Shown piece after piece: positions 48,310 through 54,409 of a stretch of 58,921 nt of DNA. The stretch is from a virus. The notes below the pieces were generated by a model that was given only the letters and a program-made list of their open reading frames with translations, was not told where the DNA came from and searched no databases. The stretch covers positions 1-58,921 of IMG/VR virus record IMGVR_UViG_3300049793_000053; one strand, written 5' to 3'. Every line of letters starts with the position of its first letter. Positions within the stretch are counted from its first letter, which is position 1. Position numbers and translations under genes: made by a program.

Positions 48310-49335
48310 CTAAAACGCCGATGCGGCTTCGCTCGTCGGTGCGCCGGTCGACTGCGGATCGTCGGCCTGCGTCGTCTCGTAGGCGCCGGCCTTCGCACCC
48401 TTCATGTACTGCTCGTGCAGCACCTTGGCGGCGATGTAGCGCTCGTCGTCGAGGCCGAGCAGCGATCGATCCATGCCGCTGCGGCCGTTCTTTTCGCTGA
48501 ACACCGGCGACAGATCCGGCACGTACCACGAGAGTTTCCCCTCCTGCCGGAACACCGTCGTGAGCCGCACGCGGTGCGCGAACATCGGCACCGGGGCCTT
48601 CGTGATCTTGCCGGTCGCGGCGTCCTTGACCTTGCTCTGATAGAGCGACACGTTCGTGTTCCACTCGCGGTACGCCTTGATCTTCGTCGAGGTGAACGAG
48701 ATCAGCACGGGGCCCTCGGCGTTCTTGCCGCCGAACACCGGCACGAGCTTGTCACCCTCGCGTTTCCACGCCTGGAACACGATGCCGGGCACCTCGTACG
48801 TCTCGACGAGCTCGGTGTCGGGCACGAGCTTGTTGTCGCGATCGAGCAGCGGCTTGCCGGCGGGGTCGAGATGCTTGAGCGGGATCTTACCGATGAACTT
48901 GCCGCCGTTCGCGTTGATCGCGTCGCGCACGATCTTGGCGTTCTTGGGATGACGGCCGCGGAAACCGCCGCCCTGTCCCTTTTCGTCGAGCGGCTTCCAC
49001 TCGGTGAACACGTGATCGGTGCCGGACGGAACGAAGTCGACCGCGTCGTAGATCTCGCCGGTGACGCTGTTGATGATCTGTCCGGCCTTCGCTTCACCCT
49101 TCGTCACGATCGGCGTGCCGGGTTGCAGGATGACGAGCATGGGGATCTTGCGATCGTCCATGTCCTGATTCTCGTGCCCCTTGCCGGCGTCGGTGCCGTA
49201 GTCCTCGGCGTCGAAAGTCGCCTCGTCGTCCTCGCGCTCGGCGAGCGCCTGCGTCTGCTGCGGCGCAGTCATCGCCTTGTTGTCCTCGGGTGCTGCTTCG
49301 GCCTTCGTGTTCTTGTTCTTGCTCGGAGTCGCCAT
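48310..49335 (-). CDS. ssDNA-binding-like replication protein (341 aa)
   Basis: A 341-residue protein with an acidic, disordered N-terminus (1-60), a beta-rich core (about 60-300, with KIPMLVILQPGTPIV and TYEVPGIVFQAWKREG) and a flexible C-terminal tail ending EAASAF. I associate this kind of protein with phage early regions, near polymerase and helicase genes, where single-stranded DNA-binding proteins lie. No OB-fold motif is certain by eye. It is followed by a strong terminator, fitting high independent expression. Confidence 0.5.
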   Translation of the reverse strand: MATPSKNKNTKAEAAPEDNKAMTAPQQTQALAEREDDEATFDAEDYGTDAGKGHENQDMDDRKIPMLVILQPGTPIVTKGEAKAGQIINSVTGEIYDAVDFVPSGTDHVFTEWKPLDEKGQGGGFRGRHPKNAKIVRDAINANGGKFIGKIPLKHLDPAGKPLLDRDNKLVPDTELVETYEVPGIVFQAWKREGDKLVPVFGGKNAEGPVLISFTSTKIKAYREWNTNVSLYQSKVKDAATGKITKAPVPMFAHRVRLTTVFRQEGKLSWYVPDLSPVFSEKNGRSGMDRSLLGLDDERYIAAKVLHEQYMKGAKAGAYETTQADDPQSTGAPTSEAASAF

Positions 49336-49424
49336 GGTCGTTTCGTTCCTTCGCTATTCGTTGACGCTCGAGACGGGGAATCCGCCGCGAGAAAAAGCAC
49401 GGTACGCGATCGGTCTGACGTCCG

Positions 49425-50042
49425 CTAGCCGCGGCCCGTCATGTCGCGGGTGATCTTCGCGATCTTCTGATCGAACACGTTGATCTTGTCGCGCGGCACT
49501 TCGGCGCCATCCTCGAGGAGCTCGCGGACGAGCTTCGATAGCGTCGTGTGGTGCACGTCCTTGACGGCTTCGACCTCGAAGCCGCGCGCTTCGAGTTCGA
49601 CGCGCAGCTCGTCGGCGCGGGCATCCTCGCCGCGCGATAGATCGACCCCCACGTGGTTCTTGATCACACCGCCGTGACCATTGGCAGCAAGCCACTCGAT
49701 CGCCGCGGCGCGCTTCGTGGGGTCGTCCTTGAGTGCCGGCAGTGATGCGCGGATCTTGCGGTCGATCGTGATCTTCGTCTTGTCGGCGAGCTTGCACTCG
49801 GAGAGCCGCATCGTGACCATGTGATCCGGGATCTCGCGCTCAACGAGATTCTTTAGCTTCAACTTCGCGGCTTCGAGATTCGCTTCGGCAAGGATCACTG
49901 CGTCGGACGCGACGAGCTCCTGTCCAACGAGATCTTCGAGCTGTGCGAAAGCGAGCTTTGCGTCGGCGGCCGCGACGTGCGATCCGGTGCCGTAGTTCGG
50001 AGCTTCCTCGGATGCCTCATCCGTCTCGATCTGATCGGTCAT
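49425..50042 (-). CDS. Hypothetical replication-associated protein (205 aa)
   Basis: A 205-residue protein with an acidic N-terminus, a long helix (KLAFAQLEDLVGQELVASDA, extending through LEAAKLKLKNLV), then an IPDHMVTMRLSECKLADKTKITI segment and a WLAANGHGG...VKNH-type alpha/beta region. This architecture is frequent next to phage ssDNA-binding and helicase genes, with unknown activity. ATG 50042 was preferred over starts inside the next gene. A TTGCGT/TAACAG promoter precedes it. Confidence 0.6.
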   Translation of the reverse strand: MTDQIETDEASEEAPNYGTGSHVAAADAKLAFAQLEDLVGQELVASDAVILAEANLEAAKLKLKNLVEREIPDHMVTMRLSECKLADKTKITIDRKIRASLPALKDDPTKRAAAIEWLAANGHGGVIKNHVGVDLSRGEDARADELRVELEARGFEVEAVKDVHHTTLSKLVRELLEDGAEVPRDKINVFDQKIAKITRDMTGRG

Positions 50043-50050
50043 GATGATCC

Positions 50051-50080
50051 CTGTTACCATCGTCAACAGATCGAACGCAA
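50051..50080 (-). promoter_or_regulatory. Candidate promoter for the 49425 gene
   Basis: Read leftward: TTGCGT (50080-50075), an 18-base spacer containing an operator half-site CTGTTGAC, TAACAG (50056-50051), then eight bases to the ATG. Confidence 0.35.
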
Positions 50081-50097
50081 GCGCGATCGTAGATTTC

Positions 50098-51759
50098 TTA
50101 CGACAGCCACTCGCGGAGATCGTCGCCGACAACCTCCGCGGCGATCTTGTTTTTCTCGATCAGCGACTTTTGGATCTTTTCGTCGACGGTGCGCAGCGCG
50201 ACGAGGTCGTAGTACGTCACCGGGTTGTGTTGCCCGACGCGATGGCACCGGGCCTCGCTCTGGATCCGCTCGTCGTACTTGAAGCTATTCGAGTAGTAGA
50301 TCGCTGCTTTCGCCTCGACGAGCGTAACGCCTACGCCGATCGCGGCCGGGTTCGCGACGAAGAATTGCGCCTTATCCCCGCCGCGGAACGCGTCGATCGC
50401 GGCCGCGCGCGCCTTGCTCGACGTGACCGCGCCGTCGTAGCGGACGCAGCGATCGCCGAGCATCTTGCACAACCGATCGACGTCGTGCCGGAACCGCGCC
50501 CAAATGATCGCCTTGTACGGGATCGACGCGCAGAGATCGATCGCATGCAGCATGCGCGGATCGTCGAGCTCGTTGCCGGGCAACCGCATCGGCTCGGCGT
50601 CGGGGTCGTCGGGGTTAGGCAGGTAGCCGCACGCGATCTGTTGCAGCCGGAGGATCTTGACGATCGCGAGCGTCGCTGTCACGAGCTTGCCCTCGAGCTC
50701 GAGCATGCATTCGCGCTTGAGCTTGTCGTACGCGGCGCGCTGGATCGGCGCGAGCTCGAACGGGATCCGGGTGTAGAGCTTCGGCGGTAGATGGATCCCG
50801 GCTTGCTCCTTCGTGAGCCGCGACGTGATCGGCGCGATCATGCGGTGTAGCTTGTCGAGGTCGCGGTAGTACGCGATCACCTCGACGGTGCGGCCGCGGC
50901 TCGCCGGCACCGGCGACGCGGCTGCAGCAGCGACGGGGGCCTCCTCACCGTCGTCACCGGCGACCAGGTCGCCCGACTCCATCGCGAGCTCGAACGCCGC
51001 CGCATCGCCGACCACGGGTTCGGCGACGAGCTTGCGGCTCGACGCCGGCTCGCGCGCGGCTACACCGTCCGTCGGTGCCGCGATCACGATCTTGCGCTTG
51101 ACCGCGAACGTTGCCTCGAACGCGGTGTAGCTGGCGATCCCGTGGCGTCGCCAAAAGTGCTCATCGATCATCACGATCTGAGAGTAGAGATCGAGCGGCG
51201 AGTTGCCGACCGGCGTGCCGTTGAGGATCCGCACGCACGCCGCGGCGATCGCGACAGCCTTGCAGATCTTGGTTCGCGCGGTCGTCGCGCCGGCGACGCG
51301 GGACGACTCGTCGATCACGAGCATGTAGCGGGGGAACGCGCGACGAAACGCACGCGCGACCTCGAGTCCGGCCGGCGTCTTGAGGCCGTCGTAGGTCATC
51401 GCCAGCCACAGCAGACGGCCGCGACCGCCGAGCACTTGTGCGACGTCGGCGATCTGCTGCCGAACCTTCGCGCGCTGTGCATCCCAGTCGACGCCGATCC
51501 ACGGTGCGCGGCAGTGGCGCGGCAGCTCGTCGGTGATCCAATTGCGGTGCACGCCGTCAGGCGCGAGCACGATCACGCCGTCGATATGCTTGTTCTCGTA
51601 GAGCCGCACCGCCGTCTCGATCGTCGGGCGCGACTTCGCAACGCCGGGCTCCCATAGGATCCCGAAGCCGCGCACGTGCCACGTGTCGGCAACGAGCGCG
51701 GCCTGATGATCGAAGTCGTCGGCGAATTCGCGCTCGCCCAAGCCGCCGCCGAGGGTCAC
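50098..51759 (-). CDS. SNF2-family DNA helicase/translocase
   Basis: A 553-residue protein with a two-lobe SF2 fold. Lobe 1: GILWEPGVAKSRPTIETA (33-50) in the Walker A position, LVIDESSRV as the DEAH-box equivalent and LNGTPVGNS as motif III. Lobe 2: IIWARFRHDVDRL and the SNF2-type QSEARCHRVGQHNPVTYYDLV. The A loop reads GVAKS rather than GxGKT. GTG start overlaps the wHTH gene. An Ala/Pro-rich acidic linker (about 260-290) separates the lobes. It probably remodels DNA or removes bound proteins. Confidence 0.85.
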   Translation of the reverse strand: MTLGGGLGEREFADDFDHQAALVADTWHVRGFGILWEPGVAKSRPTIETAVRLYENKHIDGVIVLAPDGVHRNWITDELPRHCRAPWIGVDWDAQRAKVRQQIADVAQVLGGRGRLLWLAMTYDGLKTPAGLEVARAFRRAFPRYMLVIDESSRVAGATTARTKICKAVAIAAACVRILNGTPVGNSPLDLYSQIVMIDEHFWRRHGIASYTAFEATFAVKRKIVIAAPTDGVAAREPASSRKLVAEPVVGDAAAFELAMESGDLVAGDDGEEAPVAAAAASPVPASRGRTVEVIAYYRDLDKLHRMIAPITSRLTKEQAGIHLPPKLYTRIPFELAPIQRAAYDKLKRECMLELEGKLVTATLAIVKILRLQQIACGYLPNPDDPDAEPMRLPGNELDDPRMLHAIDLCASIPYKAIIWARFRHDVDRLCKMLGDRCVRYDGAVTSSKARAAAIDAFRGGDKAQFFVANPAAIGVGVTLVEAKAAIYYSNSFKYDERIQSEARCHRVGQHNPVTYYDLVALRTVDEKIQKSLIEKNKIAAEVVGDDLREWLS

Positions 51760-51992
51760 GGTTTCGTCTCCACAAGACGCTTGCGACCAGCGTCGGTAAT
51801 ACGCCACGTGCCGCGCTCGCGACCGACGCCGGGGCCGCCGACGTACGCGATCGCGCCGGCCTGGTTCAGCGGCATCAACACCGATCGCGCGTTGCTGATC
51901 CCGATCGCCTTGCCGATCTGTTTCGCTGTCAACGCGGACGCCGCGATCAGCTCGAGCGCGGCGCGCTGTGCTTTCGACAGCGCGAGCGTCAC
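51756..51992 (-). CDS. Winged-helix DNA-binding protein (78 aa)
   Basis: A 78-residue protein that is little more than a winged helix-turn-helix: helices KAQRAALELIAA and LTAKQIGKAIG, recognition helix SNARSVLMPLNQAG, then the wing (GTWRITDAGRKRL). It resembles MarR/ArsR-like minimal regulators and is a second candidate for early-operator control. GTG in a GTGA overlap with the Dam-like stop. Confidence 0.7.
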   Translation of the reverse strand: MTLALSKAQRAALELIAASALTAKQIGKAIGISNARSVLMPLNQAGAIAYVGGPGVGRERGTWRITDAGRKRLVETKP

Positions 51993-52831
51993 CCGATCGC
52001 GCCGATGACTTCGTGCCGCTCGAAGATCGATTTGGGGACCGACGCTTGCGCGGCGAGAAACTTTCGCGCTGCGATCTGTTGCTTGTCGCGGATCTTTTTC
52101 CGCGCGTCCCACAAGATCGCGAGGTAGCTCGAGTGCGTAGGTGCGGGACCCTTGACCGGCGAGTCGTCCGATCGATTGAGGAGCTCGTCGCGGCGACGCT
52201 CGAGCTGCTTGCGATCGCTGCCGCCGGGCTTCGTCAACCGCTTTTCGATGATCGCGATCATCGCGTTCGGGTGGCACATGTACGAGACGCGGCGACCGGG
52301 GAACACGCACGCGACGCGCGGGTCGAGTGGCGACAACACACCGGCCTTACGCTCGGCCGCGTCGGGCAACGTGCTGCGGAGTTGCTCGAGCGAGAACCCA
52401 ACCCACAACGCCGATCCGATCTTGCCGGCGCGGTACCGCGACTCGAGGATCGACCACGCGGCCTGCACGTTCTCGCCGGTCGGATCGCCGTTCGGGTTCC
52501 AGAATGCCGAACCGATCTTCGGCGCTTTGGCTTCCCAGTGCTCGATCGAGTAGCAATCGCCCATGCCTTTGCCGTCGAAGAAAGCGGCCGGGCGCGAGCG
52601 CGGTTCCCACTGCTCGTTCCAGTAGTGGGACGTCGACGCGTCGAAGTCGATCGACGTCACGTCCGGTTCACTTGCCGCCGGCGCGAGCACGACCGAGGCG
52701 AACCTGCGGATCGCTTCGGGCGTTCCCCAATCGTCGGACGCCGACGACGTGAGCGCACCGCGCGAGCTCATCGCGGCGCGAGCTTCGGCCGCGACACCAT
52801 CAGGCATCGTGGTCGCGAGCGCGGGATCCAC
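51989..52831 (-). CDS. Dam-like N6-adenine methyltransferase with altered catalytic motif
   Basis: A 280-residue protein with the order of the phage Dam family (PF05869 type): SASDDWGTPEAI (31-41), IDFDAST (61-67), then GSAFWNPNGDP (107-117) where a catalytic NPPY/DPPF is expected, and a helix ALWVGFSLEQL. NPNG replaces the usual PPY, so activity is doubtful or changed. A basic helical C-terminal extension follows. GTG overlaps the upstream stop by one base. Confidence 0.6.
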   Translation of the reverse strand: MDPALATTMPDGVAAEARAAMSSRGALTSSASDDWGTPEAIRRFASVVLAPAASEPDVTSIDFDASTSHYWNEQWEPRSRPAAFFDGKGMGDCYSIEHWEAKAPKIGSAFWNPNGDPTGENVQAAWSILESRYRAGKIGSALWVGFSLEQLRSTLPDAAERKAGVLSPLDPRVACVFPGRRVSYMCHPNAMIAIIEKRLTKPGGSDRKQLERRRDELLNRSDDSPVKGPAPTHSSYLAILWDARKKIRDKQQIAARKFLAAQASVPKSIFERHEVIGAIG

Positions 52832-53052
52832 TATCCCGCCTTCGACGCGTTGGCGTTGGCGATGTCGTCGGTCGCAAGCTTGCGGAGGTACGCGCCGGCG
52901 CCGCGCTCACCGAAGCCGAGCGCCTTCGCGCGACGCTGCCAGCGGGCGAGCTCGGGATCCGTCGTACGCACCATGTAGCGCACGTCGAGCGTCGACTTCG
53001 GGTTCGGGTTCGGCCGCGGTGCGCGGGCTTTCTTCGGATTCGCTTTCGTCAT
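52831..53052 (-). CDS. Small basic RHH-like protein (73 aa)
   Basis: A 73-residue protein with a basic Pro-rich N-terminus (KKARAPRPNPNPK) and a strand-helix-helix body (VRYMVRTTDPELARWQRRA, then GAYLRKLATDDI). It may be a ribbon-helix-helix DNA-binding protein. ATG 53052 is preferred because GGGAAAG lies just upstream and a longer frame would run through the promoter. Confidence 0.6.
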   Translation of the reverse strand: MTKANPKKARAPRPNPNPKSTLDVRYMVRTTDPELARWQRRAKALGFGERGAGAYLRKLATDDIANANASKAG

Positions 53053-53061
53053 GATCTTTCC

Positions 53062-53091
53062 CTTGTACGCCGCGGCTGCGGCGATTGTCAA
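53062..53091 (-). promoter_or_regulatory. Promoter of the RHH-like gene
   Basis: Read leftward: TTGACA (53091-53086), an 18-base spacer, TACAAG (53067-53062), nine bases to the ATG. Only the CTGTTGAC half of the early operator is present. Confidence 0.5.
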
Positions 53092-53096
53092 CAGCA

Positions 53097-54071
53097 TCAC
53101 TCGGGGAAACCGGCCGCACGATGCGCGACGGCTTCCTCGAGAGAATCGTAGAGCTCGACATCGAACCAGCCCGCGGCGTGTGCGGCGTCGAGCTCGAGCT
53201 CGCGCACGTCGTCGGAGTAGCGTGACAGCGCGTGCGCCTTGATCTCCGTTGCGCCGCGCACGCCGGCAAACCGCGCCTCGTCCTGATAGCGCGTGAGCAC
53301 GCGAGGCCCGTAGCCCGGTCCGTTCTTGCGACCGACGAGGCCGGGCACGAGCGCGGAGTCGGACGTGATCTCAGCGTTCGGACGGATCGACTTGATCGCG
53401 CGGATCGCATCCCAGTAGCGGCCGCCGCGCGCCTTCGGTCCGATACCGAGCAAGTGCAGACGCGCGCCATACCACGGCAGCGACGCACAGAAGTGGCGTA
53501 GATCATCGATCGACGTCGCGGCTTTCATCATGGGGATCCCGGCGATCGGTGCCTCGCGCAAGCCGAGGATCGCGCACTCGCGCGCGTACATTTCGGACAT
53601 CGGGATCTCGCCACCCTGAACGACAACGATGATCCGGGCGCGCGTCGAAGCGACGGCCGCGACGTTCACGGCGTACCGCTCGAGTCGCGCGAGCGTGTCG
53701 AGCTGATTGCCGACGTGGTCGGGCGCGACAACGAGCGCGCGCGTGCGGAAGTTGATCCCGGCCCACATGTAGAGCTCGAACCGCTCGAGCCAATCCGCGT
53801 GCGTGATCGGAGCAACGTCAACGAGCCGACCGAGCTCCTCATCGAAGTCGACCTCTGAGAACGCCGCCGAATCGACGAACAGCTCGGTGACGCCGCCGGC
53901 GCGCAACTCGAGCGCGTCGAGCAACGGCTTGCGCGCCTCGCCGCACGTGATCCCGATGTTGCCGCACAGGCCATCGACCTCGCCCGGATGGTTGATTCCG
54001 CTCGCGAAGTGGCGGCCGATCTGCTCGAGCTCGGTAGGGAACGCGACGTCGGGGCGGTACTTGTTCGACAT
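53097..54071 (-). CDS. DpdA-like / tRNA-guanine transglycosylase-fold protein
   Basis: A 324-residue protein with motifs of the TGT/DpdA base-exchange superfamily: LFVDSAAFSE (Asp67), VVAPDHVGNQLDTLARL (Asp118), VVVQGG (149-154) and HLLGIGPKARGG followed by EITSDSA (Asp238). Phage DpdA enzymes insert 7-deazaguanines into DNA, protecting it from restriction. The Zn-binding Cys cluster of tRNA-acting bacterial TGT is not seen. No preQ0 biosynthesis genes are in the window, so a host precursor would be needed. It has its own strong promoter with operator. Confidence 0.6.
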   Translation of the reverse strand: MSNKYRPDVAFPTELEQIGRHFASGINHPGEVDGLCGNIGITCGEARKPLLDALELRAGGVTELFVDSAAFSEVDFDEELGRLVDVAPITHADWLERFELYMWAGINFRTRALVVAPDHVGNQLDTLARLERYAVNVAAVASTRARIIVVVQGGEIPMSEMYARECAILGLREAPIAGIPMMKAATSIDDLRHFCASLPWYGARLHLLGIGPKARGGRYWDAIRAIKSIRPNAEITSDSALVPGLVGRKNGPGYGPRVLTRYQDEARFAGVRGATEIKAHALSRYSDDVRELELDAAHAAGWFDVELYDSLEEAVAHRAAGFPE

Positions 54072-54077
54072 GAGAAC

Positions 54078-54106
54078 ATCCTAGCTACGTCTGTTGACGT
54101 TGTCAA
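54078..54106 (-). promoter_or_regulatory. Leaderless promoter of the DpdA-like gene
   Basis: Read leftward: TTGACA (54106-54101), 17-base spacer, TAGGAT (54083-54078), six bases (GTTCTC), ATG. It is near consensus, with no ribosome site. Confidence 0.8.
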
Positions 54107-54113: not shown

Positions 54114-54374
54114 TTACCCGATCGGTACCCGAGGGTCGAGAGTCGCGAGGAGCTGTGCCGTGATCGTGCGTTCCTGATCGGCAGCGTCGACTTTGTCGGC
54201 GAGCTCGACGGCACCATAGATCAGCGACGTCAAGCAACGCCGCGTGTCCTTGGAGCACGCGCACGCCGTGATCAACGTAGCGAGCTGATCGAGGTTGATG
54301 ATCGAGGTGCCGGTCGCGCTCGCGATCGCGTTGATGTCGCGCACAACCTTTGTCATTCGTGGATCGATGGGCAT
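54114..54374 (-). CDS. Small hypothetical protein (86 aa)
   Basis: An 86-residue helical protein with ACACSKDTRRC in the middle (three Cys). No family is recognised. It has an own leaderless promoter with operator site 2, located inside the end of the upstream gene, so it is likely under the same regulator as the DpdA-like gene that follows it. The ATG is six bases after the -10 box. Confidence 0.6.
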   Translation of the reverse strand: MPIDPRMTKVVRDINAIASATGTSIINLDQLATLITACACSKDTRRCLTSLIYGAVELADKVDAADQERTITAQLLATLDPRVPIG

Positions 54375-54380
54375 GCGACT

Positions 54381-54409
54381 ACTCTAGCCACGTCGGTTGA
54401 CGTTGTCAA
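54381..54409 (-). promoter_or_regulatory. Leaderless promoter of the 86-aa gene
   Basis: Read leftward: TTGACA (54409-54404), 17-base spacer, TAGAGT (54386-54381), six bases, ATG. It lies within the coding end of the upstream gene. Confidence 0.75.

What the first reader, a model, noticed from the sequence alone, without database searches (positions are those of the whole stretch)
53097..54071. DpdA-like enzyme suggests 7-deazaguanine DNA modification
The protein has TGT/DpdA-type motifs (DSAAFSE, APDHVG, VQGG, LLGIG, SDSA), lacks the tRNA-TGT zinc site and is strongly and separately promoted. Phage DpdA enzymes swap guanine in DNA for deazapurines, giving resistance to many restriction enzymes. 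No biosynthesis genes are in view, so a host preQ0 source or a divergent substrate is implied.
Basis: partly seen in the sequence, partly recalled or inferred. Interest (0 to 1): 0.8.

Follow-up and report, generated by a model that had tools for sequence, protein, structure and literature searches.

The report
Phage DpdA-like DNA-guanine transglycosylase, third lineage
A phage carries an enzyme built like those that swap guanine for a modified base in DNA; it belongs to a so far apparently undescribed branch of that enzyme family whose other members sit mostly inside giant multi-domain phage proteins and on plasmids, and it probably helps the invading DNA hide from host defences.

Summary
The 324-aa ORF is real, has the motifs named, lacks the TGT zinc site, and its record has no QueC, QueD or FolE. 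Alone it hits nothing in Pfam, PHROGs or the PDB. Through 26 plasmid and about 45 further relatives it becomes a clear member of the tRNA-guanine transglycosylase/DpdA superfamily. The model is an eight-stranded barrel, and 49 of its 50 best PDB matches are TGT (best E 1.3e-6). Profile comparison with phage DpdA gives 97% and score 83 (permuted-column controls at most 16).

It is neither a 9g-type DpdA nor a DpdA2. It belongs to a third lineage: mostly domains of 1,600-5,800-aa polyvalent phage proteins, some plasmid genes (one beside a DndB-family gene) and a few stand-alone phage genes. Catalytic-type residues are kept (D67, D118, Q152, H206, D238), but the substrate loop is altered. Most likely it exchanges guanine in DNA for a host-made 7-deazaguanine. 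Fold and family are shown; DNA target, base and benefit are inferred. Published lone-DpdA phages range from no modification (Orion) through traces (7-11) to dADG (MED16), so function cannot be assumed. 'Separately promoted' is half right: the promoter is one of four copies.

The parts
53097..54071 (-). DpdA/TGT-like gene, 324 aa; strand-end motifs D67 (VDSAAF), D118 (APDHVG), Q152 (VQGG), G178 (AGIP), H206/G209 (LHLLGIG), D238 (SDSA)
53337..54014 (-). barrel region, residues 20-245; mostly pLDDT about 80-97 except residues about 70-110; residues 246-324 are poorly modelled
54078..54106 (-). sigma-70-like promoter TTGACA-17-TAGGAT ending 6 nt before the ATG; suggests a leaderless mRNA
54094..54106 (.). 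palindrome TTGACGTTGTCAA overlapping the -35 box; one of four identical copies, possible phage operator
   Evidence: 13 matches with up to one mismatch against 1.0 expected
54114..54374 (-). 86-aa gene upstream of the DpdA-like gene, with its own near-copy of the same promoter (54381-54409); no family found
52831..53100 (-). small gene directly downstream; no convincing family
51989..52831 (-). 280-aa gene downstream; by eye resembles a diverged phage N6-adenine methyltransferase, but no Pfam hit
50098..51807 (-). SNF2-type helicase of phages (phrog_62 5.8e-90)

Best explanation
The gene encodes a phage DNA-guanine transglycosylase of the TGT/DpdA superfamily, in a third lineage distinct from 9g-type DpdA and from DpdA2. 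It is probably made early, from one of several similar promoters. It most likely works by base exchange as TGT does: D238 attacks C1' of a deoxyguanosine, guanine leaves, and a host-supplied 7-deazaguanine (preQ0, preQ1 or a close derivative) held by D118, Q152 and the G178-P180 loop takes its place, with D67 as acid/base. The altered guanines would block host restriction. Shown: gene, superfamily, predicted fold, residue conservation, and absence of QueC, QueD and FolE from the record. Inferred: residue roles (from TGT by position), DNA as target, the base, host supply, and protection.
For: Fold: eight strands in barrel order, pTM 0.68-0.69; 20 of the top 20 and then 49 of the top 50 PDB matches are TGT, best E 1e-4 and 1.3e-6. 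Profiles: family against phage DpdA 97%, score 83 against at most 16 for 40 permuted controls; the window with its two nearest relatives alone still gives 84%, score 47. The window plus its two nearest matches the rest of the family at E 9e-43. PHROG 887 'queuine tRNA-ribosyltransferase' hits 18 of 31 members, best 8.7e-8. Reciprocal: the family profile's only hits in the genomes of phages 9g, RHEph06, Megan, MS1 and nt-1 are their dpdA/dpdA2 genes. DpdA-type marks that seven tRNA TGTs lack: His at the HxxG motif (Tyr in TGT), the D-x-[VI]-G-[DN] stretch shared with 9g-type DpdA, and no zinc site. DNA-modification context of relatives: gene directly before a C5 methyltransferase (L075, PF00145 2.1e-44); domain in one protein with LPD1 and a weak C5-methylase match (L012); gene beside a DndB-family gene (L001, PF14072 1.9e-37). 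DpdB, needed for insertion in some bacterial Dpd systems, is described as a ParB-like ATPase (PMC12839542). Host supply: 7 of 8 bacterial carriers have a true QueC and 8 of 8 have TGT.
Against: The window protein alone reaches no TGT/DpdA model significantly (best TIGR00449 at E 0.024, cut-off not met). Fold TM-scores are moderate (0.37-0.46) and the C-terminal 80 residues are poorly modelled. Residues near-invariant in the family are changed here: G69A, P150V, S181M, N182M, R243P. No preQ0 gene was found in the record. No ParB/DpdB-like gene was recognised nearby. Published lone-DpdA phages include Orion, with no modification at all (PMC6884629). One carrier, Microvirga BT688, shows no true QueC.
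Confidence: 0.6

Rival explanations
1. It uses the same base-exchange chemistry but on another target: tRNA or another RNA of the host, shifting translation during infection.
For: The fold matches tRNA TGT best. Gln152 sits where TGT has its base-reading Gln (VQGG in both). The window's best curated model is tgt_general, E 0.024.
Against: No zinc site; no PF01702 match in the record. The HxxG and D-x-[VI]-G-[DN] motifs side with DpdA, not with tRNA TGT. Profile match is to phage DpdA, not to tRNA TGT. Relatives lie beside or fused with DNA methyltransferases.
Confidence: 0.1
2. A diverged or inactive transglycosylase fold that binds a 7-deazaguanine or modified DNA and acts as decoy, sensor or remover of a host mark rather than as a writer.
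For: Window-specific changes in residues otherwise near-invariant (G69A, P150V, PSN to PMM, R243P). Long branch. Lone DpdA of phage Orion gives no modification (PMC6884629).
Against: All five catalytic-type residues are kept; relatives L074 and L075 keep them too on phages with otherwise unrelated surroundings, which argues for selection on activity.
Confidence: 0.17
3. It attaches or removes a 7-deazaguanine on a host defence protein, like CBASS Cap10, which is a TGT-family enzyme remodelled to bind a modified protein end.
For: Cap10 (9ntn) is among the fold matches at E 1e-3. Deazaguanylation in type IV CBASS is reported (abstract of PMC11996544). Polyvalent proteins often carry domains aimed at host defence (PMC5512222).
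Against: Cap10 ranks below about 30 matches, nearly all TGT, and is not in the top 50 of the second model. Cap10 acts in one pathway with Cap9, a QueC-family protein (my own knowledge for the family of Cap9); no QueC-family gene is in the window or in any of six stand-alone relatives.
Confidence: 0.06
4. It is another TIM-barrel enzyme (for example a sugar epimerase or isomerase) with chance motif likeness.
For: Some isomerases appear lower in the fold lists.
Against: Nearly all top fold matches are TGT; motif order agrees strand by strand with TGT and DpdA; profile scores are far beyond permuted controls.
Confidence: 0.04

Closest known systems
Phage DpdA, 9g type (PHROG 887; phages 9g, CAjan, Rosebush)
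   Same: Barrel, DSGAF-type motif, D-x-[VI]-G-[DN], HxxG, final D-S/A motif, no zinc site; phage gene; profile match 97%
   Different: Gln instead of the invariant His in the QxGE/HxGE motif; window has no sequence hit by BLAST or PHROG; no preQ0 genes alongside; family mostly fused into polyvalent proteins or on plasmids
Phage DpdA2 (Vibrio phage nt-1 ORF390)
   Same: Gln (3 of 4 rows) in the QG motif; HxLGxG; D-S near the end; weak reciprocal profile hit (E 0.001)
   Different: 464 aa; FDEIP instead of APDxxG; sits among GTP cyclohydrolase I, PTPS and QueC-like genes; profile match only 39-46% for the family and 1% for the window's own branch
Bacterial tRNA-guanine transglycosylase (TGT, PF01702)
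   Same: Best fold match; same order of motifs on the strands
   Different: No zinc site, His instead of Tyr before LGIG/MGVG, no PF01702 match
Cap10 of type IV CBASS
   Same: TGT fold; fold match E 1e-3
   Different: Acts on a protein end in a defence operon; no QueC-family partner here
Polyvalent proteins of phages and conjugative elements (Iyer 2017, PMC5512222)
   Same: Most viral relatives lie in giant multi-domain ORFs, some with LPD1; several others on conjugative plasmids
   Different: The window's protein stands alone; searches of the 2017 paper's main text for TGT, queuine and deaza found nothing

Membership tests
TGT/DpdA superfamily | TGT-type (beta-alpha)8 barrel | tested here: met
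   predicted structure and fold search
TGT/DpdA superfamily | Catalytic-type Asp in the DSGxF motif, base-reading Asp, and Asp in the final motif | tested here: met
   D67, D118, D238 conserved
9g-type phage DpdA | Sequence membership (BLAST or PHROG 887) of the protein itself | tested here: not met
   no hit for the window; 18 of 31 family members hit
9g-type phage DpdA | Invariant His in the HxGE motif (9g H141) | tested here: not met
   Q152 here
9g-type phage DpdA | Inserts preQ0 or a derivative into DNA | not testable with these tools
   needs LC-MS of DNA
DpdA2 | Sequence/profile membership | tested here: not met
   family 39-46%, window branch 1%
DpdA2 | Lies with preQ0 biosynthesis genes | tested here: not met
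   no QueC, QueD, FolE in the record
tRNA TGT (PF01702) | Pfam TGT match | tested here: not met
tRNA TGT (PF01702) | CxCxxC...H zinc site | tested here: not met
Cap10 | QueC-family partner (Cap9) nearby | tested here: not met
Cap10 | CBASS CD-NTase nearby | not tested
   window ORFs were not scanned against defence models
Polyvalent protein | Domain fused in a very large multi-domain protein | tested here: not met
   window ORF 324 aa; 24 of 31 viral relatives are in ORFs of 560 to about 5,800 aa

The most novel reading that the evidence does not exclude
A third lineage of DNA-guanine transglycosylase exists as a module of giant phage and plasmid proteins that enter the recipient cell with the DNA, rewriting guanines of incoming DNA at once with the host's own queuosine precursors. 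The window's stand-alone gene is an early-expressed offshoot with a changed base pocket.
Probability: 0.3. Interest if true: 0.8.

Novelty: new variant of a known kind. Interest (0 to 1): 0.55.

Why it matters
DpdA enzymes define 7-deazaguanine DNA modification, but the published survey of phages relied on two sequence families (9g DpdA and nt-1 DpdA2), and no annotated phage record matched this protein or two of its plasmid relatives. If it works, deazaguanine marking extends to many more phages and conjugative plasmids without biosynthesis genes, living off the host's queuosine pathway. The domain's place in polyvalent proteins suggests modification upon entry rather than during replication, a testable new form of anti-restriction. 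The altered substrate loop in the window's branch is a lead to a base not yet described.

Tried and rejected
Single-protein searches of Pfam, PHROGs, PDB sequences, INPHARED phages, IMG/VR and GTDB contigs gave nothing; only tblastn against plasmids opened the family. Sequence profiles against PDB chains gave chance hits or none. Profile comparison with tRNA TGT fails, but so does 9g-type DpdA against TGT, so this does not count against kinship. PADLOC gave nothing useful. Palindrome avoidance as a sign of DNA modification: none in the window (O/E 1.00 for 6-mers), but the known modified phage 9g does avoid them (0.74), so the test is uninformative. tRNA search empty. The idea that the promoter marks this gene out was dropped, as three other genes share its -35 palindrome. 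Host could not be named: terminase and helicase relatives point to Shewanella, Rhizobium, Erythrobacter, Pseudomonas and cyanobacterial phages alike.

Full report
WHAT IS THERE. The window is one whole viral record of 58,921 bases, linear, possibly incomplete. It has terminase, portal, scaffold, major head protein and tail genes on the plus strand, and DNA polymerase A, primase, helicases and small genes on the minus strand. The gene in question is 53097-54071, minus strand, 324 aa, with a normal coding signature. Downstream lie a small gene, a 280-aa gene and a SNF2-type phage helicase; upstream lie small unassigned genes.

HOW THE FAMILY WAS FOUND. On its own the protein matches nothing at useful significance. 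tblastn against plasmids gave 26 records at about 26-33% identity, best E 2e-7, from Alteromonas, Microvirga, Cupriavidus, Stenotrophomonas and Pseudomonas plasmids, 16 of them typed conjugative. Six sequences made an alignment which found 24 viral and 15 bacterial loci. The enlarged alignment found 7 more viral loci, among them the two nearest relatives, L074 (36%) and L075 (32%). No record of the INPHARED phage set matched the window or two of its plasmid relatives.

WHY IT IS A TGT/DpdA-TYPE ENZYME. First, fold: two AlphaFold models (pTM 0.68 and 0.69) show eight strands in barrel order. Their best PDB matches are TGTs, 20 of the top 20 and then 49 of the top 50; TM-scores are moderate. Second, profiles: against nine 9g-type phage DpdA sequences the family scores 97%. 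Permuting the columns of the DpdA alignment 40 times gives at most 15.9 against 83.5 observed, and reversing it gives 13.9. The window with L074 and L075 alone gives 84%, and matches the rest of its family at E 9e-43. Third, library hits: PHROG 887, 'queuine tRNA-ribosyltransferase', hits 18 of 31 members. Fourth, reciprocity: searched through whole phage genomes, the family profile lands only on dpdA in 9g, RHEph06, Megan and MS1, and in Vibrio phage nt-1 only on ORF390. That ORF lies between GTP cyclohydrolase I and the QueC-like exsB gene, the place expected for the published DpdA2 (PMC6884629). These reciprocal E-values are weak (6.7e-6 to 0.008), and five of the ten phage genomes searched gave no hit.

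ANATOMY. The motifs fall at the ends of successive strands in the order of TGT: VDSAAF (TGT TDSGGF), APDHVG (FDEC), VQGG (VQGG), AGIP (GG[LV]), LHLLGIG (YLMGVG), TSDSA (FDCV). By position D67, D118, Q152 and D238 would be the counterparts of the Zymomonas TGT residues Asp102, Asp156, Gln203 and Asp280, whose roles (acid/base, base reading, nucleophile) are established for TGT (my own knowledge); the transfer of roles is inference. Two features side with DpdA rather than with tRNA TGT: the His at HxxG, which all three DpdA-type alignments share where seven TGTs have Tyr, and the missing zinc site. Gln152 differs from the invariant His of 9g-type DpdA and agrees with most DpdA2 rows and with TGT. 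PMC6884629 reports that DpdA2 lacks a conserved histidine numbered 196; I could not verify which residue that number denotes.

DEPARTURES IN THE WINDOW'S OWN BRANCH. Against its relatives the window changes G69, P150, S181, N182 and R243, S181 in a variable and the others in a near-invariant or common state elsewhere. L074 and L075 also depart in the loop after G178 (ALPCQA, ALPCRA), and share with the window GPxxGPRxLT after D238. The three form one supported branch (97/94), though on long branches. L074 and L075 share no other gene with the window within the 10 kb searched on each side. An altered base pocket with catalytic residues kept is the simplest reading.

WHERE RELATIVES LIVE. Of 31 viral loci, 24 have the domain inside ORFs of 560 to about 5,800 aa (mostly above 1,600), six have a shorter stand-alone gene and one was not measured. 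One giant ORF (L012) carries LPD1, the mark of polyvalent proteins, and a weak C5-methylase match. The Cupriavidus plasmid copy is a domain of a 2,206-aa LPD1 protein. The best structural match among viral proteins is an 'ART-PolyVal-like' protein. The 2017 survey of polyvalent proteins contains no mention of TGT, queuine or deaza compounds in its main text, and no Pfam model covers the domain, so I found no earlier description; its supplementary tables were not read. In the Alteromonas plasmid the gene is followed by a DndB-family gene, with a PAPS-reductase-type gene and an adenine-methylase-like gene close by. In L075 it is followed by a C5 methyltransferase. These contexts point to DNA as the target.

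SUBSTRATE SUPPLY. QueC, QueD/PTPS and FolE are absent from the window. QueC is absent from 19 of 20 viral relatives (the twentieth has one weak sub-threshold hit) and from six stand-alone relatives. Eight of eight bacterial carriers have tRNA TGT and seven have a true QueC; Microvirga BT688 appears to lack it. So a host-made or salvaged precursor is the natural source, as proposed for lone-DpdA phages (PMC6884629). Precedents are mixed: Orion no modification, 7-11 dADG in traces (PMC6884629), MED16 dADG (PMC8306585).

EXPRESSION. The promoter TTGACA-17-TAGGAT ends 6 nt before the ATG, which suggests a leaderless message. The -35 box is part of the palindrome TTGACAACGTCAA, found exactly at four sites near the right end (54094, 54397, 58232, 58554) against about one loose match expected in the whole window. 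The gene is thus one of a set under a common signal, not specially promoted.

VERDICT. The claim of 7-deazaguanine in this phage's DNA remains an inference of moderate strength. The finding is best filed as a new variant: a third lineage of DpdA-like transglycosylase, of which this is a stand-alone phage member with an altered pocket.

Noticed in passing
54094, 54397, 58232, 58554 (minus strand promoters): Four exact copies of TTGACAACGTCAA as -35 region; in at least three the -10 box ends 6-7 nt before an ATG: leaderless genes under a common, probably repressor-bound, promoter.
   Followed up: partly
L008-L030, L077-L080: A TGT/DpdA-like domain inside giant polyvalent phage proteins; no Pfam model covers it.
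   Followed up: partly
L001:4743-7290 (Alteromonas mediterranea plasmid CP004847): DpdA-like gene directly followed by a DndB-family gene, with a PAPS-reductase-type gene upstream: a possible hybrid of Dpd and Dnd systems on a plasmid.
   Followed up: partly
51989-52831 (minus): 280-aa protein with DWGTPE...FDAST...NPNG pattern resembling phage Dam methyltransferase, NPPY changed to NPNG; no Pfam hit.
   Followed up: partly
L032 genome (Microvirga sp. BT688): Carries a DpdA-like gene and tRNA TGT but shows no true QueC, so it may depend on salvaged queuosine precursors.
   Followed up: no
48310-50132 (minus): Two genes match cyanophage Pam3 gp34 and gp33 families beside the SNF2 helicase, a conserved phage gene trio of unknown role.
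   Followed up: no
window, whole: Several palindromic 6-mers are absent though expected (AGGCCT, TTCGAA, TTGCAA; ACCGGT nearly so), while palindromes overall are not avoided.
   Followed up: partly
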